In this document: positions 18,166-43,586 of the stretch, one piece after another
Position numbering within the stretch: position 1 is the stretch's first letter
How the letters are laid out: the number at the start of each line of letters is the position of its first letter
Source of the DNA: Pseudomonas fragi
GTDB lineage: Bacteria; Pseudomonadota; Gammaproteobacteria; Pseudomonadales; Pseudomonadaceae
Direction: 5' to 3'
NCBI RefSeq assembly: GCF_002269505.1
Contig: NZ_NQKQ01000001.1
Span: forward strand, 488,982-552,981
DNA: 64,000 bases
The notes under the pieces: generated by a model
Told to the model about the DNA's origin: nothing
What the model saw: the letters and a program-made list of their open reading frames with translations, nothing else
Databases searched by the model: none
Program-made: the position numbers and the translations under genes

Positions 18166-19381
18166 TGCGGTTACGGCACACGTAGAGCCCCATCACGCTC
18201 AACAGGGTGTAACTGGACAGGCCGACCCAGCCCAATGCGCTGGCCGGCCACAGCCCCGCCACAGGGGCCAGCCAGACCAGTGGCACATTGAGCGCCAGGC
18301 GCAACCACTCAAGCTTCAACGCCCAGGGCCGATTCTCCAGGCCTGCCCCCAGCACAAACAACCCCAACGCCATATACCCCCAGCCCAGCATCAGCGCTTG
18401 GGGCGACAGCGTCTCGCCCAGATTCAGCAAATAACTGCCCAGGGCCACATAAACCGCAAATTGCGACGCGATGTACACCTGCTGGCGAAACGGCAAGGGC
18501 ACTTCGAATTTCTCGAACCGGCTTAAATCCGGCTTGCTCATCGGGTACTTCGCCGCCACATCCGCCGGGCGCCAGCCTGTGGGCATAAACCAGATGCGCA
18601 GTTTGTCTTGCCAGCGTGTGGTGCGCCGCGCATCAGCCAGTAACTGGCCATAGAACTGCCAGTTGGCCCACAGCGGGTTCCAGCTTTGCAACGGTGTAGT
18701 CACCCCGAACACCACCGGCTCGGCATCGTCCTCTTCCTGAAAGGTGCCGAACAAACGGTCCCAAACAATGAACACTCCGCCGTAATTGCGATCCATGTAG
18801 AGAGCATTCTGTGCATGGTGAGCACGATGATTGGAAGGCGTCACAAAGAACCACTCGAACCGGCCCAGCTTGGGCACATGGCGGGTATGAACCCAGAACT
18901 GATAGAGCAGGTTGACGGTGGCCACCGTGACAAATACCGACAGCGGCACACCCAGCACCGCCATTGGCAGGTAAAACACCCAGCCGAACACAAACCCGGT
19001 GCTGGTTTGGCGCAGGGCGGTGGACAGGTTGTAGTCTTCACTCTGGTGATGCACCGAATGCGCGGCCCACAGCACGTTGCGCTCATGCCCGAGGCGATGG
19101 TGCCAGTAGTAGCAAAAGTCATAGAACACAAAAGCAAACAACCAGACCCACAGGCTGTCCTCGGGCAGATGCAGCAGCGCCAGATAGTTAAGCGCCAGCG
19201 CATAGGTGACAAGGCCTACGCCCTTGGTCAGCAAACCGGTGGTGGTGGACAGCACGCCGGCGCTCAGGCTGCTGACGGTGGCTGCCAGACGATAAGTGCG
19301 CATCCCGCGCCAGCGGTCCGCCAGCAACTCGACAGCAATCAGCACAAAGAAAAACGGCACGGCATACAAAATCAGCTTCAT
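18143..19381 (-). CDS. Sterol desaturase / fatty acid hydroxylase family protein
   Basis: A 412-residue membrane di-iron protein. The His boxes are HHRLGH, HSVHHQSEDYN and NHRAHHAQN, with membrane helices on both sides. The C-terminal third is a membrane domain often seen in Gram-negative members. The substrate could be a fatty acyl lipid or an ether lipid; there is no evidence for sterols. ATG 19381 is chosen because GGGGTG lies upstream. It is convergent with dedA. Confidence 0.85.
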   Translation of the reverse strand: MKLILYAVPFFFVLIAVELLADRWRGMRTYRLAATVSSLSAGVLSTTTGLLTKGVGLVTYALALNYLALLHLPEDSLWVWLFAFVFYDFCYYWHHRLGHERNVLWAAHSVHHQSEDYNLSTALRQTSTGFVFGWVFYLPMAVLGVPLSVFVTVATVNLLYQFWVHTRHVPKLGRFEWFFVTPSNHRAHHAQNALYMDRNYGGVFIVWDRLFGTFQEEDDAEPVVFGVTTPLQSWNPLWANWQFYGQLLADARRTTRWQDKLRIWFMPTGWRPADVAAKYPMSKPDLSRFEKFEVPLPFRQQVYIASQFAVYVALGSYLLNLGETLSPQALMLGWGYMALGLFVLGAGLENRPWALKLEWLRLALNVPLVWLAPVAGLWPASALGWVGLSSYTLLSVMGLYVCRNRITRLAGC

Positions 19382-19489
19382 GGCACACCCCGAGCGATAT
19401 TCCATCAAGCGTAGGCGTACTTACTGCGAAACCCTATGGCATCAAGCGCCAAATCAGGCGACATTAACGCCATGAACAAGGAGACCGAC

Positions 19490-20155
19490 ATGACCACAAA
19501 AAAAGTTGCCGTCATTCTTTCGGGTTGCGGCGTCTATGACGGCGCCGAGATCCACGAAAGCGTGATCACCCTGCTGCGCCTGGACCAGCGCGGCGCCAAA
19601 GTGCAGTGCTTTGCCCCCGACATTGCGCAACTGCATGTCATCAACCACCTGACCGGCGAGCAAATGCCCGAGACCCGCAACGTGCTGGTGGAATCGGCGC
19701 GCATTGCCCGGGGCGAGATCAAGGATATTCGTGAGGCCAGGGTCGAGGATTTTGATGCCCTGATCATACCGGGCGGGTTTGGCGCAGCCAAAAACCTCTC
19801 CAGCTTTGCCACTCAGGGCGCTGCGTGCACGGTCCAGCCAGAGGTGTTGAGCCTGGCCGAAGCCTTTGCTGAAGCGGGCAAACCCATTGGCCTGATGTGC
19901 ATATCACCCGCCATCGCCGCCAAGATTTATGGCCCGGGCGTGATCTGCACCATCGGCACCGACGCCGACACTGCCGCGGCCGTCACCAAGATGGGCGGTT
20001 CCCACCAAGAGTGCGAAGTATCGGAAATTGTCGAAGACAAGGCGCGCAAGCTGGTGAGCACACCGGCTTACATGCTCGCCAAATCCATCAGCGAGGCAGC
20101 ATCCGGAATCAACAAAATGGTAGACCGGGTACTGGAGCTTACTCAAAAAAGCTGA
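19490..20155 (+). CDS. elbB: Glyoxalase ElbB, DJ-1/PfpI superfamily
   Basis: A 221-residue protein with the ElbB start KKVAVILSGCGVYDGAEIHE, then ALIIPGGFGAAKNLSSFA and IGLMCISPA, where the Cys matches the DJ-1 nucleophile. E. coli ElbB has weak glyoxalase activity; an older name links it to isoprenoid synthesis. AAGGAG 6 bases before ATG 19490 sets the start; two in-frame ATGs upstream lack this. Its stop codon abuts the stop of the convergent DUF188 gene with no spacer. Confidence 0.93.
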   Translation: MTTKKVAVILSGCGVYDGAEIHESVITLLRLDQRGAKVQCFAPDIAQLHVINHLTGEQMPETRNVLVESARIARGEIKDIREARVEDFDALIIPGGFGAAKNLSSFATQGAACTVQPEVLSLAEAFAEAGKPIGLMCISPAIAAKIYGPGVICTIGTDADTAAAVTKMGGSHQECEVSEIVEDKARKLVSTPAYMLAKSISEAASGINKMVDRVLELTQKS

Positions 20156-20608
20156 TCAGCCCCGTGCCAGCCGGGTCAGGATCCGGTCCAGGGCATTGGC
20201 GAACGCCTGCTTGTCGCGCTCGCCATAGGCGCCCTGCCCGCCGCTGACCTGGCCTTGTTCGCGCAGATCGGTAAACAGATTGCGCACCGCAAGGCGTTCG
20301 CCCATGTTTTGCGAGTCAAACTCCTTGCCCCGCGGGTCGAGCGCGGCGACGCCCTTCTTGACCAGCCGGTCGGCCAGCGGCACATCGCTGCAAATTACCA
20401 GCTCGCCGGGCACGGCGTGCTCGACCAGATAGTCATCCGCAGCGTCCGGGCCGCTGGGCACCACAATCAGTTTGACCAGCGCATAGGTTGGCTTGATCTG
20501 GCTCTGCCCTGCCACCAGCACCACTTCAAACTGACGCTTGAGAGCGAACTTGATGACCTGATCCTTCGCCGCCTTGGGACATGCATCTGCGTCGATCCAG
20601 ACACGCAT
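20156..20608 (-). CDS. YaiI/YqxD family protein (DUF188)
   Basis: A 150-residue cytosolic protein with the PIN-like signature MRVWIDADACPKAAKDQVIKFA, ending GERDKQAFANALDRIL. The acidic residues of WIDADACP suggest a metal-dependent nuclease fold, but activity is unproven for the family. GGAGT precedes ATG 20608. It lies 65 bases downstream of the PheRS-like gene on the same strand and could be read through from it, although YaiI is common without such a neighbour. Confidence 0.9.
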   Translation of the reverse strand: MRVWIDADACPKAAKDQVIKFALKRQFEVVLVAGQSQIKPTYALVKLIVVPSGPDAADDYLVEHAVPGELVICSDVPLADRLVKKGVAALDPRGKEFDSQNMGERLAVRNLFTDLREQGQVSGGQGAYGERDKQAFANALDRILTRLARG

Positions 20609-20673
20609 GAGAGTAACTCCTGAAAAATGAGCCAAGGCTATCACCTGCAAGCCAATCAGGACGGAGTACGGGC

Positions 20674-21813
20674 TCAGCCTTTGAGTTTGTAACCGCCACC
20701 TTCAACGCCTTCATGCAACTCAGACTGAATGCGCTCATATAAAGCATTGGCTTGCAGAGTAGTAATGGAGCGCGAGCAGTCGCGCAATACAACCCGCAGC
20801 AAAACGTTTTCTTGCCCCGGTAAAAGCCCGAGCCGATCGATCGCCTGTACCGGCAACTCATCTATAGCCCAACGCCCTATGACTTGCATTTCCTCAATCC
20901 AGACAGAGCGATCACCCGCCGCAAGCAACATTTTTTCGGTCAGCACCTCTTCACTCAAACCCGGCGTCACAGCAAGGGAGATATCTCGCGTAATTGAGGG
21001 CAACCGCGAAACGGTTTTCCAGGGTTGCAAGTCATACATCTGGGCCTGAACACGCTTATCAGGATCGCGTAACAAGCGGATATCGGGTATGCCCTTGCGC
21101 AACATGGTCAAACGGTCCAGACCCATACCCAATGCCAGGCCACCATGCCGGGAAGGATCAATCCCCAGCCTTCGCAAAAGTGAAGGTGCAATACACCCGC
21201 ACTCAAGCACTTCGACGGGCTGCCCCTGGGAGATCAGGTTTACCTCTATTCCTCCCTCGGTGTAATGGTGCGGGCTGGGGCTGTATACCCACTCCATATC
21301 GGGTACTGAACACTCAAGGATGTCGCTTACCAACTTCAGCAAATGTGAGCGTGTGGAAAGCTCTGGATCACCGAGAACCCAAATATCCATTTGATGTGGC
21401 TCAGCACAGTGCCATCTGTCGCGGCTATCCCGCCTGAAAGTAATCCCCGGGGCCGCCAAAAGGATGACCTCTCCTGCTTGGCGGTCCTGAGCAATGCGCT
21501 GCAAAGCCCGCGGGATTTGGCTGGTAGTTTGAGTGCGCAATAGCGAGTGCTCGTCTACCCAGCGCGTATGCTCACTGCCTAATGTAACTTCCGCAGGATC
21601 GTAACCAAGCAATCCATAGTTCTCTTGAGCAGAAACAATGCGCGGGCCTCTCAGGATCTTGCCGGCAGGCCAACCCCGTATCACCAGGCCCTCCAGCACC
21701 TCCCCCAACAAAAGCCCAATGGCATGCGCTGGATGCTCCAGCTCAGTGAGATCACACAGTTCAAGGGCGTCACTGACCGAGCGTGCGCAAAGATACTGTT
21801 TTGATGAAAGCAT
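20674..21813 (-). CDS. Stand-alone PheRS-like ligase (PheS core fused to anticodon-binding-like domain)
   Basis: A 379-residue class II aminoacyl-tRNA-synthetase paralogue. The catalytic core resembles PheS: motif 2 elements LLRTQTT (91–97) and TFRRD (125–129) with PHQMD (139–143), and motif 3 GLALGMGLDRLTMLR (225–239). From ~267 to the end it has an FDX-ACB domain (SITRDISLAV at 273–282; Lys377 near the end), an arrangement seen in monomeric mitochondrial PheRS. It lacks the N-terminal tRNA-binding coiled coil of PheS. The PheS pocket motif FPFTEPS reads HHYTEGG (182–188) here, so the substrate is probably not Phe. GAGGAA precedes ATG 21813. It is divergent from the peptide gene at 22128. 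From memory, NCBI has a 'PheS-related mystery ligase' family that may cover it (unverified). Its acceptor is unknown: tRNA, the peptide or a small molecule. Confidence 0.8.
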   Translation of the reverse strand: MLSSKQYLCARSVSDALELCDLTELEHPAHAIGLLLGEVLEGLVIRGWPAGKILRGPRIVSAQENYGLLGYDPAEVTLGSEHTRWVDEHSLLRTQTTSQIPRALQRIAQDRQAGEVILLAAPGITFRRDSRDRWHCAEPHQMDIWVLGDPELSTRSHLLKLVSDILECSVPDMEWVYSPSPHHYTEGGIEVNLISQGQPVEVLECGCIAPSLLRRLGIDPSRHGGLALGMGLDRLTMLRKGIPDIRLLRDPDKRVQAQMYDLQPWKTVSRLPSITRDISLAVTPGLSEEVLTEKMLLAAGDRSVWIEEMQVIGRWAIDELPVQAIDRLGLLPGQENVLLRVVLRDCSRSITTLQANALYERIQSELHEGVEGGGYKLKG

Positions 21814-22127
21814 AACGATTCCTCATGCAGATCGTGGCAAACACCAGCGCGTACTGGCCAGATAGAAGCGATCAGATAAACATCCAACAACTCACAACGG
21901 CAAATCAACAAAATACTTATGAAATATCAATTATCAGGCAATACCTACATACATTTCCTACGCTAAGAGCTCTCCCGACTTAACAAGAGCCCACAAATTA
22001 AAAAACAATATAACCCCATGATGATTATTGCTTTGAGCTTTTAACAACCCTGCCTAACATGACCACGTCCTGAGTGACTCAGGCGCCTGATAAATAAACT
22101 TTCCATGCATCATAAAGAGGAAGAACC
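21814..22127. promoter_or_regulatory. AT-rich divergent control region of the ligase/peptide cassette
   Basis: These 314 bases separate the divergent ligase and peptide genes and are much richer in A/T than the surrounding core genome. A weak promoter candidate for the peptide is TTGCTT–17 bases–TGCCTA (22028 onward), followed by the palindrome at 22070–22082. No other gene is seen. Promoter placement is inference. Confidence 0.4.
22070..22082. promoter_or_regulatory. Palindrome upstream of peptide gene
   Basis: CTGAGTGACTCAG has perfect 6-base arms around one central base and is adjacent to AGGCGCCT, another palindrome (22081–22088). Its position ~45 bases before the peptide start suits an operator. 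No candidate regulator is encoded in the cassette. Confidence 0.3.
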
Positions 22128-22229
22128 ATGACACATTCTACTTTTTCAAAAGAAGCATTAAACCGGACCACCTCCGACCCGGACAATTTTGGCTGGGCGC
22201 CACTGGCCTGGGCTTATGAACCTGACTGA
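22128..22229 (+). CDS. 33-residue aromatic-rich peptide, candidate modified-peptide precursor
   Basis: ATG 22128 is preceded by AGAGGAAG at ideal distance, a strong ribosome binding site for such a short frame. The peptide has a polar N-terminal half (MTHSTFSKEALNRTTSDPD) and a hydrophobic, aromatic end FGWAPLAWAYEPD with W23, W28, Y30 and a terminal Asp. This two-part layout is like a leader plus core of a ribosomally made, modified peptide. It is followed by a hairpin and then by the metalloenzyme gene 79 bases on, and is divergent from the PheRS-like ligase. Alternatives are an aromatic-codon leader peptide for attenuation, or a small regulatory protein. I recognise no family. Coding status is inferred from the ribosome binding site and context. 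Confidence 0.65.
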   Translation: MTHSTFSKEALNRTTSDPDNFGWAPLAWAYEPD

Positions 22230-22244
22230 GCGGGCAATGTAAAC

Positions 22245-22287
22245 ATGAGTGCCACGTTTATTAATTACACATAAAACTGGCACTCAT
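22245..22287 (+). promoter_or_regulatory. Hairpin between peptide gene and metalloenzyme gene
   Basis: ATGAGTGCCA-c-GTTT (22245–22259) pairs with AAACTGGCACTCAT (22274–22287), a stem of about 14 pairs with one bulge. No T-run follows, so it is more likely an mRNA-stabilising or partial-attenuation structure than a full terminator. It would allow more peptide than enzyme to be made from one transcript. Confidence 0.55.
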
Positions 22288-22308
22288 TACACCCGAGAGG
22301 ACAAGCCC

Positions 22309-23235
22309 ATGACTTATAAAACCCTTCCTTTCAACTTTACAGACATGCGAATTATTTCAGACAGCATCGCCTTCCTTCATCAGTGCAAGGCTGACGGTTT
22401 CACCACGCAGGCACTCAATCAAATAGAGTCTCTTCCAGAGCAAAGTCTTATTTTTTCATTTTGCAATGAGGCCGCCAGGCGAACCTTTGAAATAGCCAAG
22501 CTCACGCCCGCCAAACAGAGCATTTTTTGTGCGGTGCATGTGTTCGAGGCCTCGGTGGAGAGCGCGCGCTACGGTCTCGACTTAATACTTAAAAGTGATT
22601 TTCTCTGTGCACTCAAAAAGCAACGAAGTGTATTAGAGAAACTTGATAAGCATCGGCACTTTAATTTGCACGGCGACTGCTCTGAAGCCAGCGTTATGAT
22701 TTCAGAGCATACGACCCCCTACGCCATGATCGAAGAAGACATTACCAAGAACTTTATTCACTCGGTTGCTGAATTTTTCGAAGTCCATTATGCACATATG
22801 AATGCAAGCGCTCCTTGTCCGTTTCAAGTCAACGGATACTTGAGTGTCTCAGGCATTCTTACCGTACTTAGAAAAGCACCATTGATAAAGGACCACGCAA
22901 TGAAAATCGCCCTTGAGCAATTAACCCAAGCAGTCGCACTCCACACCGCACGCCTCACGGTAAAAAACAACATCATCACCTCATTTGTCGTCAATCATAT
23001 TGACCATGCCGAGTTACTGAAGTGTGCAGCAGGCCCCCGAGGGTTAGCCCTGACAGAGTTTGCAGTTGGCGTTAACGAGTCCATTGCACCTGTTATCGAC
23101 TACCGCATTAACTCTCAAATGAATGAAGGCATTAGCGGGGTGCATGTCGCTATAGGCGATGGGTCTTCGGGCTATCACATTGATTTTCTGAGCCCGGGTG
23201 TGGACTTCAGCCCCACTGAGGCTGAAGGCACATAA
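22309..23235 (+). CDS. M29 aminopeptidase / NicX-like metalloenzyme homologue
   Basis: A 308-residue cytosolic protein; GAGAGG 8 bases before ATG 22309 sets the start. The C-terminal part matches the M29 fold: TEFAVGVN with Glu250, NEGISGVHVAIG with Glu273 and His279, and YHIDF with His290 and Asp292. These correspond to metal ligands of M29 aminopeptidases; the last HxD pair is also used by the Fe(II) 2,5-dihydroxypyridine dioxygenase NicX of the same superfamily. The N-terminal ~200 residues are divergent and not recognised. It could trim the upstream 33-residue peptide or oxidise a product. Low GC (25 of 60 bases in 22441–22500) separates it from the neighbouring genes. Confidence 0.6.
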   Translation: MTYKTLPFNFTDMRIISDSIAFLHQCKADGFTTQALNQIESLPEQSLIFSFCNEAARRTFEIAKLTPAKQSIFCAVHVFEASVESARYGLDLILKSDFLCALKKQRSVLEKLDKHRHFNLHGDCSEASVMISEHTTPYAMIEEDITKNFIHSVAEFFEVHYAHMNASAPCPFQVNGYLSVSGILTVLRKAPLIKDHAMKIALEQLTQAVALHTARLTVKNNIITSFVVNHIDHAELLKCAAGPRGLALTEFAVGVNESIAPVIDYRINSQMNEGISGVHVAIGDGSSGYHIDFLSPGVDFSPTEAEGT

Positions 23236-23248
23236 ACAGACACAGCGG

Positions 23249-23300
23249 GTTGGAGCTGTATTATCGGGCTCTGCGTATCGTCGGCAAGCCAGCTCCCAAC
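23249..23300. repeat. Imperfect inverted repeat after cassette
   Basis: GTTGGAGCTG (23249–23258) faces CAGCTCCCAAC (23290–23300) with a one-base bulge. It sits between the convergent metalloenzyme and FTR1 genes and may be a degenerate REP element or a terminator. Confidence 0.45.
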
Positions 23301-23334
23301 GGGAGCCTCAGGCTTACCGAAAATACATCAAGGC

Positions 23335-25230
23335 TTAAGCCTGCACCCGGCGTTTCTCCGCCATTTTGCTACGGCTGTACAACACGATAATTGCCAAAAT
23401 GGCTACGGCTTGCGCACTCAGCGAGTACGCATCTGCGTGAATACCCAACCAGTCGAAGTCGAAGAACGCTACAGGCCGTGTGCCGAAGATGCCCGCTTCT
23501 TGCAGTGCCTTCACGCCATGCCCCGCGAATACCACCGACAACGCGCAGAGCAAGGCCGCGTTGATGCTGAAAAACAGCGCCAATGGCAATTTTGCCGAGC
23601 CACGCAGAATGATCCACGCCAGGCCCATCAGCAATACCAGTGCCGTGGCGCCGCCCGCCAATACCGCGTTGTGACCCGCAGGGCCGGCTTGCAGCCACAG
23701 GGTTTCGTAGAACAAGATCACTTCGAACAGTTCGCGGTACACCGAAAAGAACGCCAGTATCGCGAAGCCAAAACGACCGCCGCCACTGACCAAACTGCTT
23801 TTGATGTAATCCTGCCACGCGGCGGCGTGACGACGGTCGTGCATCCATACGCCCAGCCACAGCACCATGACGCTGGCGAACAAGGCTGTGCAGCCCTCCA
23901 GCAGCTCGCGCTGGGCACCGCTGACGTCGATGACATAGGCAGCCAGCGCCCAGGTCGCCAGCCCCGCCACCAGGGCCAGGCCCCAGCCGACGTTGACACT
24001 GCGCACCGCCGATTGCTGACCGGTATTGCGCAGGAAAGCCAGGATCGCGGCCAGAACTAGAATCGCTTCCAGGCCTTCACGCAGCAAAATCAACAGCCCG
24101 GAGACATAGCTCAAGGTCCAGCTCAGGCCATCGCTGCCCAGCAGCCCGGCAGATTCCTTGAGCAAGACTTTGGCCGCTTCCAGTCGCTGTTCGACCTGCT
24201 CGATCGGCAAGCCGTCCTGCAGCGATTGCCGATAGGCCATCAGGGCTTTTTCAGTGTTTTTGCGCACATTGGCGTCAACGTTATCCAGCGAACTTTCAAC
24301 GAGTTCAAAACCTTCCAGATAAGCCGCCACCGACAGGTCGTAGGCTTGCTCACGGTCACCGGCGCGGTAAGCCGCCAGGCTTTTATCCAGGGTGGCGCTG
24401 GTGTAGTCGAGCAACTGCGCCGGGCCGCGTTTGACTAGCGGCGGTTGCGCCCGCTGGGCACGGAACGTGGCGGTCGCCTCGGGGCCTTCAGCCGCCAGCA
24501 CTTCATTCGGGGTTTGACGGGCGAGGTCCGCCAGGTTGTAGGTTTTGTCTGCCTTGATGGCACTCGGGTCGGCACTCAGCCCGGCGATGTAGGTGGCCAG
24601 GTCCCAGCGCTGACGCTCGTCCAGCTGATCAGCGAACGAAGGCATGTCGGTGCCTTCAACCCCCAGGCCAAGGGTGTTGTAGATCGCGTAGAGGCTCAGG
24701 CGGTCCAGGCGCTGGCCATCGCGCAAGTTGGCCGGGGGTGGCGTCATGCCCACACTTGCCGGGCCATCACCGGCGCCGGTTTCACCGTGACACACCGAAC
24801 AATGCTGCGCGTACAACGGCGCACCGCGGGTCGGGTCCGGGGTAATTGCCGGAGCCTGGCTGACCTCATAGGCCACGGCCAGTTTGGCCCCCAATTGCCG
24901 GGCTTCACGGGCAACAGCGGTGCCGTCTTCACGCTTTTCGATGGCCGTTTGCAGAGCATTCACGCCCTGCACCAGTTCGTCACGCTCAGGGCGTTGCGGC
25001 AAGTCAGCGATCAGTCCTTTGAGTACAGCCAGAAACTCAAGCTGCTCGCGGTACTCGGTCTCGTCGATGACCTTGCCGTTTTCAACCGTGGGCGGGTAGT
25101 CCGCACCGATATAGTCAATCAGGTGCAGCGCCTGAGAGGCGCCTTCCGGGGAGTTGGCAGAAGCAGCCAGGCTGCAAAACGCAAGCACGGGCAACAGGAG
25201 CCATGCCAAAAAACGCGAGCGGGAGGTCAT
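23335..25230 (-). CDS. Cytochrome c–FTR1 fusion iron permease
   Basis: A 631-residue protein with signal peptide (LLLPVLAFCSLAASANS). A c-type cytochrome domain (~130–220) has the heme motif CSVCH and the likely axial Met in GTDMPSFADQL. A helical linker follows, then a C-terminal FTR1 permease (~375–620) with seven or so membrane helices and both iron-binding REXXE motifs (REGLE, RELFE). FTR1 proteins import ferrous iron coupled to oxidation; here the cytochrome probably accepts the electron in place of a separate EfeO/EfeB or copper oxidase. No Fur box was recognised upstream. Confidence 0.9.
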   Translation of the reverse strand: MTSRSRFLAWLLLPVLAFCSLAASANSPEGASQALHLIDYIGADYPPTVENGKVIDETEYREQLEFLAVLKGLIADLPQRPERDELVQGVNALQTAIEKREDGTAVAREARQLGAKLAVAYEVSQAPAITPDPTRGAPLYAQHCSVCHGETGAGDGPASVGMTPPPANLRDGQRLDRLSLYAIYNTLGLGVEGTDMPSFADQLDERQRWDLATYIAGLSADPSAIKADKTYNLADLARQTPNEVLAAEGPEATATFRAQRAQPPLVKRGPAQLLDYTSATLDKSLAAYRAGDREQAYDLSVAAYLEGFELVESSLDNVDANVRKNTEKALMAYRQSLQDGLPIEQVEQRLEAAKVLLKESAGLLGSDGLSWTLSYVSGLLILLREGLEAILVLAAILAFLRNTGQQSAVRSVNVGWGLALVAGLATWALAAYVIDVSGAQRELLEGCTALFASVMVLWLGVWMHDRRHAAAWQDYIKSSLVSGGGRFGFAILAFFSVYRELFEVILFYETLWLQAGPAGHNAVLAGGATALVLLMGLAWIILRGSAKLPLALFFSINAALLCALSVVFAGHGVKALQEAGIFGTRPVAFFDFDWLGIHADAYSLSAQAVAILAIIVLYSRSKMAEKRRVQA

Positions 25231-25296
25231 CGATCAATCCGGATGGAAATGAGAAGTAACATATTGTTCACTTCCCATCATCCCGACTCAAGGCCT

Positions 25297-25929
25297 TTAG
25301 ACGGTAGCGCGATGCAACGTCGCCAGAAAACCCGCTGCGCCAACAAACAGACCGGCAAAAGTACGGTTCATGCGGCGCTGCTGCTTGGGGGTGCGCAACA
25401 AGCGCAGGACCTTGGACGCCAAACCGGTGTAACCGGCCATGACCACCAGATCGACGCAAATCATCGTCACACCCAACGTCAGGTATTGGGACACCAGTGG
25501 CTCTGCCGGGTTGACGAACTGCGGCAGCACGGCGAGCATGAAAACCAGCGCCTTGGGGTTGCTGACGTTGACCAGAAAGCCGCGAAATACCAGCGCCAGC
25601 GGCTTGCCGATGGGTCGCACAGCAGCGTCATCGCTCAGGTCAGCTGGCAGGGCCCGCCATTGTTTGACGGCGAGGTACACAAGATAGGCCACGCCGAACC
25701 ATTTGATCGCGTAGAAGGCCGTGGATGAGGCCGCGAGTATGGCGCCAACCCCGGCGGCGACAATGGCAATTTGCAGCGCCAGGCCCAGTTGCAGGCCCAG
25801 GGCGTTCCAGTAACCGCGCCAGAAGCCGTACTGCAGACCGCACGACATCGAGGCAATCGCACCGGCGCCGGGGGACAGGCTGATTACCCAACAGGCAGCA
25901 AAAAAGGCCAACCACGTTTCCAACGACAT
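25297..25929 (-). CDS. LysE/RhtB family amino-acid exporter
   Basis: A 210-residue membrane protein with the family start WLAFFAACWVISLSPGAGAIASMSCGLQYG and the second conserved block FLVNVSNPKALVFMLAVLPQFV. About six membrane helices are visible. Members export homoserine, threonine or other amino acids; the substrate is not determined. It is a single gene with REP-like repeat sequence on the far side of its promoter. Confidence 0.9.
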   Translation of the reverse strand: MSLETWLAFFAACWVISLSPGAGAIASMSCGLQYGFWRGYWNALGLQLGLALQIAIVAAGVGAILAASSTAFYAIKWFGVAYLVYLAVKQWRALPADLSDDAAVRPIGKPLALVFRGFLVNVSNPKALVFMLAVLPQFVNPAEPLVSQYLTLGVTMICVDLVVMAGYTGLASKVLRLLRTPKQQRRMNRTFAGLFVGAAGFLATLHRATV

Positions 25930-26018
25930 CGCACACCTCGGACAAGATCTGTAACAAGTCCCTTAAGCTAATGCGTTGGTTGAAAATTGACCACAGTTTT
26001 TTGAGGTTGCAACTGACT

Positions 26019-40329: not shown

Positions 40330-42252
40330 TCAGGGGCGAATCGCAGGCGCTCGCTGCCAGTCCAGATCCTTGGCAGGCATCGGGCGTCCGAACCAGTAGC
40401 CCTGACCCAGGTTGCAGTTAAGGTCGAGCAGGAACTGCGCCTGCTCAACCTGCTCTATCCCTTCGGCATGCACCTGCAGGCCCATGCTTTGACCCAGTGC
40501 GATAACCGCACGCACGATCGCCACATCGTCATTGTCCCCGGGCAAGCCAGCGACAAATCCCTGATCGATTTTCAGCTTCTGCACGGGCAAGCGTTTGAGT
40601 CGCAGCAAGGATGAGAAGCCGGTACCGAAATCATCGATGGCCAGGCGCAAACCCAGCGCACGCAGACGATGCATCTGCTCCAGGGCCACTTGCGAGTTGT
40701 CCATGACCGCACTTTCGGTCACTTCAAGCTCCAGCAGGGCTGGATCCATTCCGGTGTCTGCCAGTACCGTTGAAACCAGCGAAAATAGCTCAGGACGGGC
40801 AAACAACCGGCTGGAAATATTCACCGCCACAAACGTCAGTTCCACACCTGCAGCCTGCCACTGAACCATCTGCCAACAGGCTTGCTCCAGCACCCAGGCG
40901 TCAATCTCGGCAATCAACCCGGTACGCTCCGCGATCGGGATGAACTCGCCCGGCGACAACAGCCCCCGCAGCGGATGCTCCCAGCGCACCAGTGCTTCAA
41001 CGCCAATCAGGCGGCTGCTTTTAAGGTCGTGCACCGGCTGGTAGTACACACGCAGCTCGTGCTGCTCCAGGGCACGGCGCAGATCGCTGGCCACTTCAAT
41101 CCGGTACTGGGCATGGGCCGTCAGCTCTTCGGTGTACAAGGCATAGCCCTCGCGCCCCGAGCTTTTGGCCTTGAACAACGCCGAATCGGCATTGCGCAGC
41201 AATTGCTCGGCGTTCAGAGCATCGCTGGGGAACACGCTGATGCCAACGCTGGCACTGATAAACAGTTGATGCTTGTCGACATCGAACGAGCCTTTCATGA
41301 CCTCCAGCACCTGCTGCGCAAGTCCGGCTGCCTGGCTGGTTTGCGCACAGCTGTCGACCAGCACGGCGAACTCATCACCGCCCAGCCGGGCCACGGTAAA
41401 GCCTTTGCCAAACACCCTGAGCAAACGCTCGGCCACCGCCTTGAGCAGCAGGTCTCCGACGTTGTGGCCCAGGCTGTCATTGATAATCTTGAAGTGATCC
41501 AGATCGATCATCAGCAGCGCACAGCCGGTCTGATGGCGTTGCGCAGAAGCCAGCGTCTGCTCGGTGCGGTCGGTAAACAGCAGGCGGTTGGGCAGGTCTG
41601 TCAGGGGATCATGGTGAACCAGGCGCGCCAGTTCGGTCTGGGAGTTCTTGATGGCGGAGATATCTGAAAAGACCGCGACATAGTGGCTGACCTGGCCCTT
41701 GTCATCGGTAATCGAGCGAACTGTCTGCCACTGCGGGTAAATTTCGCCGCTTTTTCGCCGGTTCCAGATTTCGCCGTGCCATTCGCCGCTTTCTTCCAGG
41801 GATTTGAAAATCGCCTGATAGAACTCGGGACCATGACGGCCCGACTTGAACATGTTCGGGCGCTGGCCAAGCACCTCTTCGACCGGGTAGCCGGTGATTT
41901 CAACCAGCGCCCGGTTCACATGCACAATCACCCCGCGGCGGTCGCTGACCAGCACCCCTTCACGGGTGCAGTCAAAGACCACGGCCGCCTGGCGCAAACG
42001 CTCCTGATCCTGACGTTGACGCTTCAAACCGGGGCTCATGCCCAAAAAATCGCACAGCCGGGCACGGGCGAAAAAAATCAATACGGCACTGAACAGGGCG
42101 AAAACATAGGCATTGATGCGCTGCCACTGCGCCAATTGCGCTGAATCATCGAAATAACTGTTCAATAAATGATCAGTTATAAACAGCCAGAAAACCGATA
42201 GCAGCCCGTATAACACGGCCGTACGCAAGGCATCACGAGAAGAAACAGACAT
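40330..42252 (-). CDS. PAS–GGDEF–EAL c-di-GMP protein
   Basis: A 640-residue inner-membrane protein: two N-terminal helices, a PAS domain (~90–210, VSDRRGVIVHVNRALVEITGYPVEEVLG), a GGDEF domain (~215–375) with intact LGGDEFAVLV, and an EAL domain (~395–640) with GVEALVRWEHP and DDFGTGFSSL. Both catalytic signatures are intact, so it could make or degrade c-di-GMP. No RxxD inhibitory site was seen before GGDEF. It is next to and divergent from desA, the order also known from P. aeruginosa. Confidence 0.92.
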   Translation of the reverse strand: MSVSSRDALRTAVLYGLLSVFWLFITDHLLNSYFDDSAQLAQWQRINAYVFALFSAVLIFFARARLCDFLGMSPGLKRQRQDQERLRQAAVVFDCTREGVLVSDRRGVIVHVNRALVEITGYPVEEVLGQRPNMFKSGRHGPEFYQAIFKSLEESGEWHGEIWNRRKSGEIYPQWQTVRSITDDKGQVSHYVAVFSDISAIKNSQTELARLVHHDPLTDLPNRLLFTDRTEQTLASAQRHQTGCALLMIDLDHFKIINDSLGHNVGDLLLKAVAERLLRVFGKGFTVARLGGDEFAVLVDSCAQTSQAAGLAQQVLEVMKGSFDVDKHQLFISASVGISVFPSDALNAEQLLRNADSALFKAKSSGREGYALYTEELTAHAQYRIEVASDLRRALEQHELRVYYQPVHDLKSSRLIGVEALVRWEHPLRGLLSPGEFIPIAERTGLIAEIDAWVLEQACWQMVQWQAAGVELTFVAVNISSRLFARPELFSLVSTVLADTGMDPALLELEVTESAVMDNSQVALEQMHRLRALGLRLAIDDFGTGFSSLLRLKRLPVQKLKIDQGFVAGLPGDNDDVAIVRAVIALGQSMGLQVHAEGIEQVEQAQFLLDLNCNLGQGYWFGRPMPAKDLDWQRAPAIRP

Positions 42253-42401
42253 AAGAAAGTTAATGCACCTACAAAAAAGTGGGAATTATAGTGTAAGAAA
42301 CATCCGGGCACTCTTATCTGAAAGGCCGACTGGTTTTATCTGGCTGCATGGTGATAATGCGTGTTGCAGTTTTTTTCATCTTCCCGAGGGCCAAACAGCC
42401 T

Positions 42402-43586
42402 ATGTGGTACAACGGTTTTCTCGACTTGTCAGCCTGGCAACTGGTGGCAGTCACTCTGTTGATGACCCACGTGACCATTATCGGTGTCACGGTTTATCTA
42501 CACCGCTACTCAGCCCACCGCTCATTGGAGCTCAATGGTGGCCTGAAACACTTTTTCCGCTTCTGGTTGTGGCTCACCACCGCGCAGAACACCCGCGAGT
42601 GGACAGCTATCCACCGCAAGCACCACGCCAAATGCGAAACCGCCGATGACCCGCACAGCCCGGTAATCAAAGGGTTATCGACCGTTTTGCGAAAAGGTGC
42701 AGAGCTGTATCGTGAAGAAGCTCAAAATCCTGAAACACTGCGCATTTACGGCAAAAACTGCCCTGAAGACTGGATTGAGCGAAATCTTTATTCGCGTTAC
42801 AAAATGCTCGGTGTGGCGATCATGCTGGTCATCGACCTGCTGCTGTTCGGCGCCATCGGCCTGACTATCTGGGCCATCCAGATGATGTGGATCCCGGTGT
42901 GGGCTGCAGGCGTAGTCAACGGCTTGGGCCATGCTGTGGGTTATCGCAACTTCGAGTGCCGCGACGCAGCCACCAATCTGGTGCCTTGGGGCATCATCAT
43001 TGGCGGTGAAGAGCTGCACAACAACCACCACACTTACCCCAACTCGGCCAAGCTGTCGGTCAAGAAGTGGGAGTTCGACCTGGGTTGGGCCTGGATCAAG
43101 GTCTTCAGCTTTTTGCGTCTGGCCAAGGTTCAGCGTGTTGCGCCTATCGCCCATCGGGTAGAAGGCAAAGGCAACCTGGACATGGACACCGCCATGGCGA
43201 TCCTCAACAACCGTTTCCAGATCATGGCCCAGTACCGCAAGCTGGTCATTGCGCCGCTGGTACAGCAAGAGCTGGCCAAGGTCGATCACTCGGTGCGTCA
43301 TCAGTTCCGCCGCGCCAAGCGTTTGTTGTCGCGTGAAACCAGCCTGCTCGAAGACCGCCATCACCAGCGGATCGAGAAGATGCTGGAGCACAGCCAGTCG
43401 CTGAAAGTGATTTACGAGAAGCGCCTTGCCCTGCAACAGATCTGGGTCAAGACCAGCACCAATGGCCACGACATGCTCGCGGCGATCAAGGAATGGGTAC
43501 ACGAGGCAGAAGCCAGCGGGATCCAGTCGCTGCGCGACTTTGCCCACCAGCTCAAGACCTACTCGCTGCGGCCTGCGGCGGTTTAA
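42402..43586 (+). CDS. desA: Acyl-lipid delta-9 desaturase DesA
   Basis: A 394-residue membrane di-iron desaturase with His boxes HRYSAHRS, HRKHHAKCE and EELHNNHHTYP. DesA inserts a double bond into acyl chains of membrane phospholipids and helps adapt membranes to cold. ATG 42402 begins MWYNGFLDLSAWQ; upstream ATGs lack a ribosome binding site. The C-terminal ~130 residues are helical and charged, as in Pseudomonas DesA. A strong terminator follows. Confidence 0.93.
   Translation: MWYNGFLDLSAWQLVAVTLLMTHVTIIGVTVYLHRYSAHRSLELNGGLKHFFRFWLWLTTAQNTREWTAIHRKHHAKCETADDPHSPVIKGLSTVLRKGAELYREEAQNPETLRIYGKNCPEDWIERNLYSRYKMLGVAIMLVIDLLLFGAIGLTIWAIQMMWIPVWAAGVVNGLGHAVGYRNFECRDAATNLVPWGIIIGGEELHNNHHTYPNSAKLSVKKWEFDLGWAWIKVFSFLRLAKVQRVAPIAHRVEGKGNLDMDTAMAILNNRFQIMAQYRKLVIAPLVQQELAKVDHSVRHQFRRAKRLLSRETSLLEDRHHQRIEKMLEHSQSLKVIYEKRLALQQIWVKTSTNGHDMLAAIKEWVHEAEASGIQSLRDFAHQLKTYSLRPAAV

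What the first reader, a model, noticed from the sequence alone, without database searches (positions are those of the whole stretch)
20674..23235. Cassette of PheRS-like ligase, 33-residue peptide and M29-like metalloenzyme
An AT-richer block sits inside conserved core DNA, between a DUF188 gene and an FTR1 gene. It encodes a stand-alone PheS-type ligase with an anticodon-binding-like domain, divergent from a tiny aromatic-rich peptide gene and a metalloenzyme. Known precedent: peptide aminoacyl-tRNA ligases (TglB with TglA in Pseudomonas syringae) add amino acids to a small scaffold peptide, which is then modified and released. Here the ligase is from a different fold, so this may be an independent peptide-scaffold pathway. 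The functional link is inference from gene proximity. Hand counts: 25 of 60 G/C in 22441–22500 against 40 of 60 in 23881–23940.
Basis: partly seen in the sequence, partly recalled or inferred. Interest (0 to 1): 0.93.

Follow-up and report, generated by a model that had tools for sequence, protein, structure and literature searches.

The report
PheRS-like guardian in crocagin-type peptide cassette
A small three-gene insert in this Pseudomonas chromosome encodes a strongly conserved 33-residue peptide, a protein of the crocagin peptide-binding family and a single-chain relative of phenylalanyl-tRNA synthetase; it likely makes a small modified peptide, and the synthetase relative, which strains usually keep when they lose the other two genes, is predicted to protect the cell from it.

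Summary
Between DUF188 and FTR1 genes, adjacent in 7 of 11 relatives, sits a 2.7-kb insert: srmL (NCBIfam "PheS-related mystery ligase"), divergent from a 33-aa peptide gene and a CgnB-type gene (crocagin family, M29-derived, metal ligands kept). The peptide is real: NFGW[AS]PL[AV]WA is constant in 30 loci over 26 DNA spellings, and a covarying hairpin separates it from cgnB.

The ligase as a dedicated TglB-like peptide ligase is not supported. In 298 Pseudomonas genomes the peptide motif never occurs without srmL (14 of 14), but 14 of 30 srmL genomes lack a CgnB-type gene. Of 57 full-length Pseudomonas-type srmL genes, 28 have an intact cgnB, 9 a broken one, 20 none, with at least 12 state changes on the tree, and srmL stays under purifying selection. 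A distant solitary clade exists too. This one-way retention resembles producer/self-protection cassettes. Best guess: a minimal RiPP-type product with SrmL as a resistant stand-in synthetase. Against it: the Phe-stacking residues and an adenine-side Phe are replaced, so SrmL may use another substrate. Activity, product and target are untested.

The parts
20612..23334 (.). inserted block (edges approximate): from the DUF188 start codon side to the FTR1 stop codon side
   Evidence: homology to empty sites of relatives stops at 20607-20611 and resumes at 23337-23389 (sites); GC 50% against 58%
20674..21813 (-). srmL, 379 aa, single-chain PheRS-like ligase
21040..21576 (-). class II PheRS catalytic core (residues 80-258)
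   Evidence: PF01409; R127, H140-Q141 and R234 aligned with motif 2 and motif 3 of the own PheS are kept
20710..21009 (-). FDX-ACB (anticodon-binding-like) domain (residues 269-368)
   Evidence: PF03147, 21.7 bits, below cut-off here; 9 of 11 members match at E 0.001
21202..21270 (-). codons of H182, Y184 and E204, aligned with Phe, Phe and Gly of the genome's own PheS
   Evidence: 66 of 68 SrmL each, exceptions L151 and L152
21814..22127 (.). divergent intergenic region, 237-314 bp in 14 loci, with short conserved blocks
22128..22229 (+). 33-aa likely precursor peptide MTHSTFSKEALNRTTSDPDNFGWAPLAWAYEPD
   Evidence: protein-level conservation in 30 loci, 26 different 30-nt spellings of the core; motif absent from all 268 of 298 genomes without srmL over cut-off
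22185..22214 (+). conserved core NFGWAPLAWA
22245..22287 (+). hairpin between peptide and cgnB-type gene (10-bp perfect stem)
   Evidence: z -5.13 in the window; a hairpin in each of the 27 of 28 intact loci that were folded, z -1.3 to -6.1; 5 of 9 consensus pairs with changes on both sides in 16 hand-picked sequences, the window's not among them
22309..23235 (+). CgnB-type peptide-binding protein, 308 aa, metal ligands kept
   Evidence: 6zsv E 7e-17; E250, E273, H279, H290, D292 align with CgnB ligands; the sixth, CgnB E161, falls at E155 or E158

Best explanation
This is a three-gene cassette, found at many chromosomal sites, in which a conserved 33-residue peptide is likely bound and processed by a CgnB-type protein into a small modified peptide, and in which the divergent single-chain PheRS-like ligase SrmL is predicted to protect the host from that product. 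Shown by sequence: the three genes, their conservation and joint descent, the covarying hairpin, the insertion, and the one-way retention of srmL. Inferred: that the hairpin lets the peptide be made in excess; that CgnB binds the FGWAPLxW core and, through its predicted two-metal site, releases or cyclises it; that the product blocks an aminoacyl-tRNA synthetase, most simply PheRS; and that SrmL, which has the domains of mitochondrial PheRS on one chain but an altered pocket, goes on charging tRNA when the housekeeping enzyme is blocked, as ObaO and AgnB2 do for obafluorin and agrocin 84.
For: One-way dependence in one set of genomes searched separately for each gene: peptide motif in 14 of 298, all 14 with adjacent srmL; srmL over cut-off in 30 of 298, 14 of these without a CgnB-type match. 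Of 61 Pseudomonas-type srmL loci (found through srmL, so loci without it are not in this count), srmL is full length in 28 of 28 with intact cgnB, 9 of 10 with broken cgnB and 20 of 23 with none. At 8 chromosomal sites sisters with and without intact cgnB coexist; srmL is full length in all 12 sisters that lost it. At least 12 state changes forced by starred branches, 18 by parsimony. Median srmL dN/dS 0.077 with intact cgnB (22 pairs), 0.10 without (32 pairs); L103 and L110 share one and the same deletion of peptide and most of cgnB, and their srmL ratio is 0.062. SrmL-CgnB distance correlation 0.962 in 28 loci, 0 of 2000 permutations. srmL at 21-27 sites in 60 loci, 16 of the 27 with an intact cgnB. 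Precedents: ObaO (PMC10619133, passages), AgnB2 (PMC5059758, abstract).
Against: The residues that stack on Phe in PheRS (Phe258 and Phe260 in T. thermophilus, PMC8555319 passages) are His182 and Tyr184 in 66 of 68 SrmL, and a Gly of the EVxGCG strand is Glu204 in 66 of 68. The Phe that seems to correspond to the adenine-stacking Phe216 (matched by position, not tested) is Pro139 in 68 of 68. So Phe may not be the substrate and ATP may be held differently. Solitary SrmL in 11 loci of a distant clade and on two plasmids has no known producer nearby. No toxicity, product or target is shown; retention would also follow if SrmL simply had a job of its own.
Confidence: 0.35

Rival explanations
1. 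SrmL is an enzyme with a cell function of its own (an aminoacyl-tRNA synthetase or amino-acid ligase for something other than Phe); peptide and CgnB were added next to it and share its promoter region for another reason, for example because the product feeds or regulates SrmL.
For: Solitary clade of 11 loci, with low dN/dS in the six Marinomonas pairs that could be measured (0.071-0.118); solitary plasmid copies; non-Phe pocket in both clades and Pro139 throughout; PylRS, a PheRS descendant, also has Tyr at the Phe260 loop (PMC11764691 passages).
Against: Does not explain why the peptide motif is never found without srmL (14 of 14) nor the distance correlation of 0.96. No tRNA gene recurs in 31 loci scanned.
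Confidence: 0.29
2. SrmL is a tailoring enzyme: it activates an amino acid and joins it to the peptide or its processed core (works like a PEARL, or like the aaRS paralogue EpmA, recalled), CgnB presenting the peptide; the reader's reading.
For: Adjacency in all intact cassettes and joint descent; motif-2 and motif-3 Arg and the HQ pair kept; CgnB and CgnE hand the precursor to a partner enzyme (PMC10070186).
Against: srmL is kept in 29 full-length loci without intact cgnB, in a whole solitary clade, and under purifying selection; the four residues after WA vary and two intact loci end right at the core (L135, L143), so there is no fixed acceptor end; CgnB-type genes with a related peptide occur without srmL in 2 genomes (G126, G250).
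Confidence: 0.2
3. The 33-aa frame is a regulatory leader peptide (aromatic attenuator) for the CgnB-type gene, not a precursor.
For: Short, Phe/Trp-containing, followed by a conserved hairpin.
Against: Nearly the whole decapeptide and the R and S before it are conserved, including non-aromatic residues, with a fixed distance to the stop in 30 of 30 motif loci; the hairpin has no regular U-run; the downstream protein is of a precursor-binding family.
Confidence: 0.04

Closest known systems
Crocagin biosynthesis (CgnA/CgnB/CgnE, Chondromyces crocatus; PMC10070186)
   Same: Short aromatic precursor beside a CgnB-type metal-site protein; single-copy homologues with intact metal site are described there, from about 100 genomes, Gammaproteobacteria included.
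   Different: No oxygenase, second copy, protease or methyltransferase gene recurs here; the core is FGWAPLxW, not a C-terminal Ile-Tyr-Trp; a PheRS-like ligase is the constant partner.
NCBIfam NF051887, PheS-related mystery ligase SrmL
   Same: The window ligase is a member (425 bits, cut-off 300).
   Different: The family entry as the tool shows it gives no partner or function; here partner genes, one-way retention, pocket changes and a solitary clade are added.
Self-immunity aaRS: ObaO (obafluorin, P. fluorescens), AgnB2 (agrocin 84)
   Same: A second, divergent aminoacyl-tRNA synthetase next to the genes of a small product.
   Different: SrmL is a single-chain form unlike the two-subunit housekeeping enzyme; resistance is untested.
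PEARL pathways (TglA/TglB, TmoA/TmoB; PMC9303977)
   Same: A ligase and a small peptide in one locus.
   Different: PEARLs phosphorylate the peptide C-terminus and use aminoacyl-tRNA; no such gene recurs here, and SrmL is a class II synthetase fold often found without the peptide.
Human mitochondrial PheRS (3tup, 3cmq)
   Same: One chain with PheRS core and C-terminal FDX-ACB; best whole-length structural match.
   Different: 18% identity; the window protein lacks the Phe-stacking pair of bacterial PheRS.

Membership tests
SrmL (NF051887) | score over the curated equivalog cut-off | tested here: met
   425.3 bits against 300
CgnB/CgnE family (PF26231) | sequence similarity over most of the protein to CgnB or CgnE | tested here: met
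   6zsv E 7e-17 over residues 74-303; PF26231 precomputed on the 97% identical P0001; the Pfam copy searched gave no hit
CgnB/CgnE family (PF26231) | CgnB-type metal ligands kept (single-copy members) | tested here: met
   E250, E273, H279, H290, D292 align with CgnB E252, E274, H280, H291, D293; E161 not placed to one residue; H279 kept in 27 of 28 intact loci
Crocagin-type cluster | CgnC oxygenase, two CgnB/E copies, Tyr-Trp core end | tested here: not met
   besides srmL and cgnB no gene cluster lies near srmL in more than 8 of 31 loci; core is FGWAPLxWA; no direct search for CgnC was made
PEARL / pearlin pathway | a peptide aminoacyl-tRNA ligase (LanB-like, recalled) and C-terminal loading | tested here: not met
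   no such family among the 7 window proteins scanned and no third recurring gene; loading itself not testable
Functional PheRS | Arg of motifs 2 and 3 and the HQ pair of the alpha core | tested here: met
   R127, Q141, R234 in 68 of 68 SrmL; H140 in all rows
Functional PheRS | Phe-stacking and adenine-stacking residues | tested here: not met
   F, F to H182, Y184 in 66 of 68; motif-2 Phe to P139 in 68 of 68; roles from PMC8555319 passages; eukaryotic cytosolic PheRS also departs at the first two (recalled)
Self-immunity aaRS | confers resistance to the co-encoded product | not testable with these tools
   no assay; retention pattern only

The most novel reading that the evidence does not exclude
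SrmL is a new kind of aminoacyl ligase descended from PheRS: a stand-alone, mitochondrial-style chain that activates an amino acid other than Phe (H182/Y184/E204 pocket), and Pseudomonas carries it with a minimal two-gene crocagin-type RiPP whose FGWAPLxW-derived product is either its substrate or the poison it neutralises.
Probability: 0.25. Interest if true: 0.93.

Novelty: new variant of a known kind. Interest (0 to 1): 0.74.

Why it matters
It ties an enzyme family that NCBI itself files as a mystery ligase to a conserved peptide and to a protein family with solved structures, and turns the question of its function into a two-plasmid experiment. If the protection reading holds, it is a very small antimicrobial cassette (peptide, one maturation protein, one guardian) at some 16 chromosomal sites in the loci seen, with orphan guardians at others marking who may meet the product in nature. 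If the other-amino-acid reading holds, it is a new ligase specificity.

Tried and rejected
Dedicated tRNA or known RNA element: no tRNA gene recurs in 31 loci given to the scan; no Rfam match at E 1 in 19000-26000. Plasmid carriage of the cassette: SrmL relatives on 3 plasmid records, all under 60% identity, and CgnB-type matches only on two other records; phages were not searched. Third gene of the cluster: besides srmL (29 of 31 loci in that listing; the other two carry it under a longer overlapping frame) and cgnB (14), the commonest neighbours are two clusters in 8 of 31 loci each, at varying places. Cassettes outside Pseudomonas: in 321 class-level genomes a CgnB-type gene only in the window's own, SrmL at E 1e-50 in the window's own and two more; one MAG titled Paucimonas has a full cassette (L154). 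A 33-aa frame upstream of the srmL-less cgnB genes L089-L092 and L094 was rejected as a peptide: it breaks in L093 and lacks the core. Print: the listings (20 of 23 papers shown) show no paper joining SrmL or a PheS paralogue with CgnB; the supplements of PMC10070186, which list CgnB/E homologues and predicted peptides and may include these, could not be read. Papers seen: PMC10070186 parts 1-4 of 6; PMC5059758 abstract and outline; PMC9303977 abstract and start of the introduction; PMC10619133, PMC8555319 and PMC11764691 passages; others as listings only. Rows dropped: L168 (contig end) from the site count; 4 short srmL from dN/dS and tree; pairs outside dS 0.05-1.0 from the dN/dS medians; L154 not folded because the script did not find its peptide; 16 of 27 hairpins, picked by eye as alignable, used for the covariation count. 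The AF2 model is of middling confidence (pTM 0.61; linker 245-271 under 50), so the whole-length match has a large rmsd (domain orientation); the PheRS core match (rmsd about 3.2-3.9 for bacterial chains) is the firm part.
Full report

It is an insertion. The flanking DUF188 and FTR1 genes are neighbours in 7 of 11 relatives in which the DUF188 stretch was found; one of the seven, G011, carries a cassette elsewhere. GC3 is 0.47-0.57 against 0.72-0.78 for neighbours. Sixty srmL loci occupy 27 sites if both flanks must match, 21 if one suffices; 16 of the 27 hold an intact cgnB. Apart from srmL and cgnB no gene cluster is near srmL in more than 8 of 31 loci.

The peptide is real. With N of NFGW as anchor, N, F, G, W, P, L, W and A of the core, and R and S before it, are invariant in 30 of 30 motif loci; the stop lies 14 residues on in 30 of 30; the ten core codons have 26 DNA spellings. 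Anchoring on NFGW forces N and F; the rest is free. Two further intact loci have a variant core, GF[ST]WPPL[AS]W[AP], and end right there (L135, L143), so 28 of 28 loci with intact cgnB have a peptide of the family. Of the 30 motif loci 26 have intact and 4 broken cgnB; none of the 23 loci without cgnB has the motif. The degenerate DNA motif hits 14 of 298 genomes and its reversed control none. Between peptide and cgnB lies a hairpin in each of 27 loci folded, weak in some (z -1.3 to -6.1, mononucleotide shuffles); in the window z is -5.13 (dinucleotide shuffles), and 5 of 9 consensus pairs covary in the 16 hand-picked sequences. Such a hairpin may favour excess peptide; that is inference.

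The ligase is not tied to the peptide, but the peptide is tied to the ligase. In the same 298 genomes SrmL over cut-off is in 30, a CgnB-type match in 25 (four of them fragments or frameshifted: G058, G213, G269, G271), both in 16 (about 2.5 expected if independent), the peptide motif in 14, all within those 16. The nine CgnB-only genomes carry more distant copies (28-46% identity); two of these have a related 25-aa peptide ending in PLTKW. Among 61 Pseudomonas-type srmL loci (and the window) cgnB is intact in 28, broken in 10, absent in 23; srmL is full length in 28, 9 and 20 of these. These loci were found through srmL, so the one-way test proper rests on the 298 genomes. Eight sites hold both kinds of sister. 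The tree needs 18 changes, at least 12 by starred branches; long branches make some joins unsure, and gains are not told from losses by that count, though broken copies show losses directly. dN/dS of srmL is 0.077 with intact cgnB, 0.066 with broken and 0.117 with none (medians of 22, 3 and 14 usable pairs): slightly relaxed, still constrained. L103 and L110 share one deletion that removed the peptide and most of cgnB; their srmL genes differ by 33 synonymous and 7 non-synonymous changes. A sister clade at 37-41% identity in Marinomonas and other bacteria, 11 loci, has neither partner.

How it likely works. Genes kept one way round, with the product genes lost again and again, is what self-protection genes do, and a resistant second synthetase beside product genes is known in this very genus (ObaO). 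SrmL keeps the motif-2 and motif-3 Arg and the HQ pair on one chain. Against the simplest form, a stand-in PheRS, stand three changes: the Phe-stacking pair is His and Tyr and a nearby Gly is Glu in 66 of 68 (exceptions L151 and L152), and the motif-2 Phe, likely the adenine-stacking one, is Pro in 68 of 68. Tyr at the Phe260 loop is also seen in PylRS and, as I recall, in eukaryotic cytosolic PheRS, so Phe is not excluded. I put 0.35 on protection by a stand-in synthetase, 0.29 on an independent function, 0.20 on peptide tailoring.

What is new. The ligase family is named and the CgnB family is known; their pairing, the peptide family, the one-way retention and the pocket are in no paper that the listings showed, with the caveat that the supplement of PMC10070186 was out of reach.

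Noticed in passing
L089-L094 (unnamed Pseudomonas genomes G141, G079, G070, G169, G044, G006): A CgnB-type gene without srmL sits at one fixed site beside what look, by eye, like prolyl-iminopeptidase (called in 5 of 6) and hut genes, with no recognisable peptide.
   Followed up: partly
L095, L096 (G126, G250): CgnB-type gene without srmL, preceded by a 25-aa peptide (..N[TS]FG[YF]YPLTKW) and followed by what looks, by eye, like a LuxR-type regulator gene on the other strand: a second peptide family of this kind.
   Followed up: partly
L192:6004-7122 (Glutamicibacter nicotianae plasmid pGnB68): A solitary SrmL relative (39% identity) lies next to a Cmx/CmrA chloramphenicol efflux gene on an actinobacterial plasmid, annotated only as hypothetical protein.
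   Followed up: partly
L061, L062, L066, L067, L068, L072, L077, L078: A gene for an unidentified protein of roughly 100-200 aa lies within about 5 kb of srmL in 8 of 31 loci, at varying distance and strand.
   Followed up: no
L165 and L166: Acidithiobacillus marinus and Pseudomonas indoloxydans records carry an identical SrmL protein and an identical neighbouring frame: recent transfer or contamination.
   Followed up: no
L194:3785-4765 (Thermus thermophilus plasmid pAA2-2c): A distant CgnB-type protein (29%) directly followed by ABC transporter genes, a possible further peptide cluster.
   Followed up: no
window 42068-42572: The only other stretch of the window where 500-base GC falls below 47%.
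   Followed up: no
window 21814-22127: The divergent region has short blocks conserved in most of 14 loci (such as TTTCAGA, CTACA, AAATAACC), perhaps a shared regulator site.
   Followed up: no
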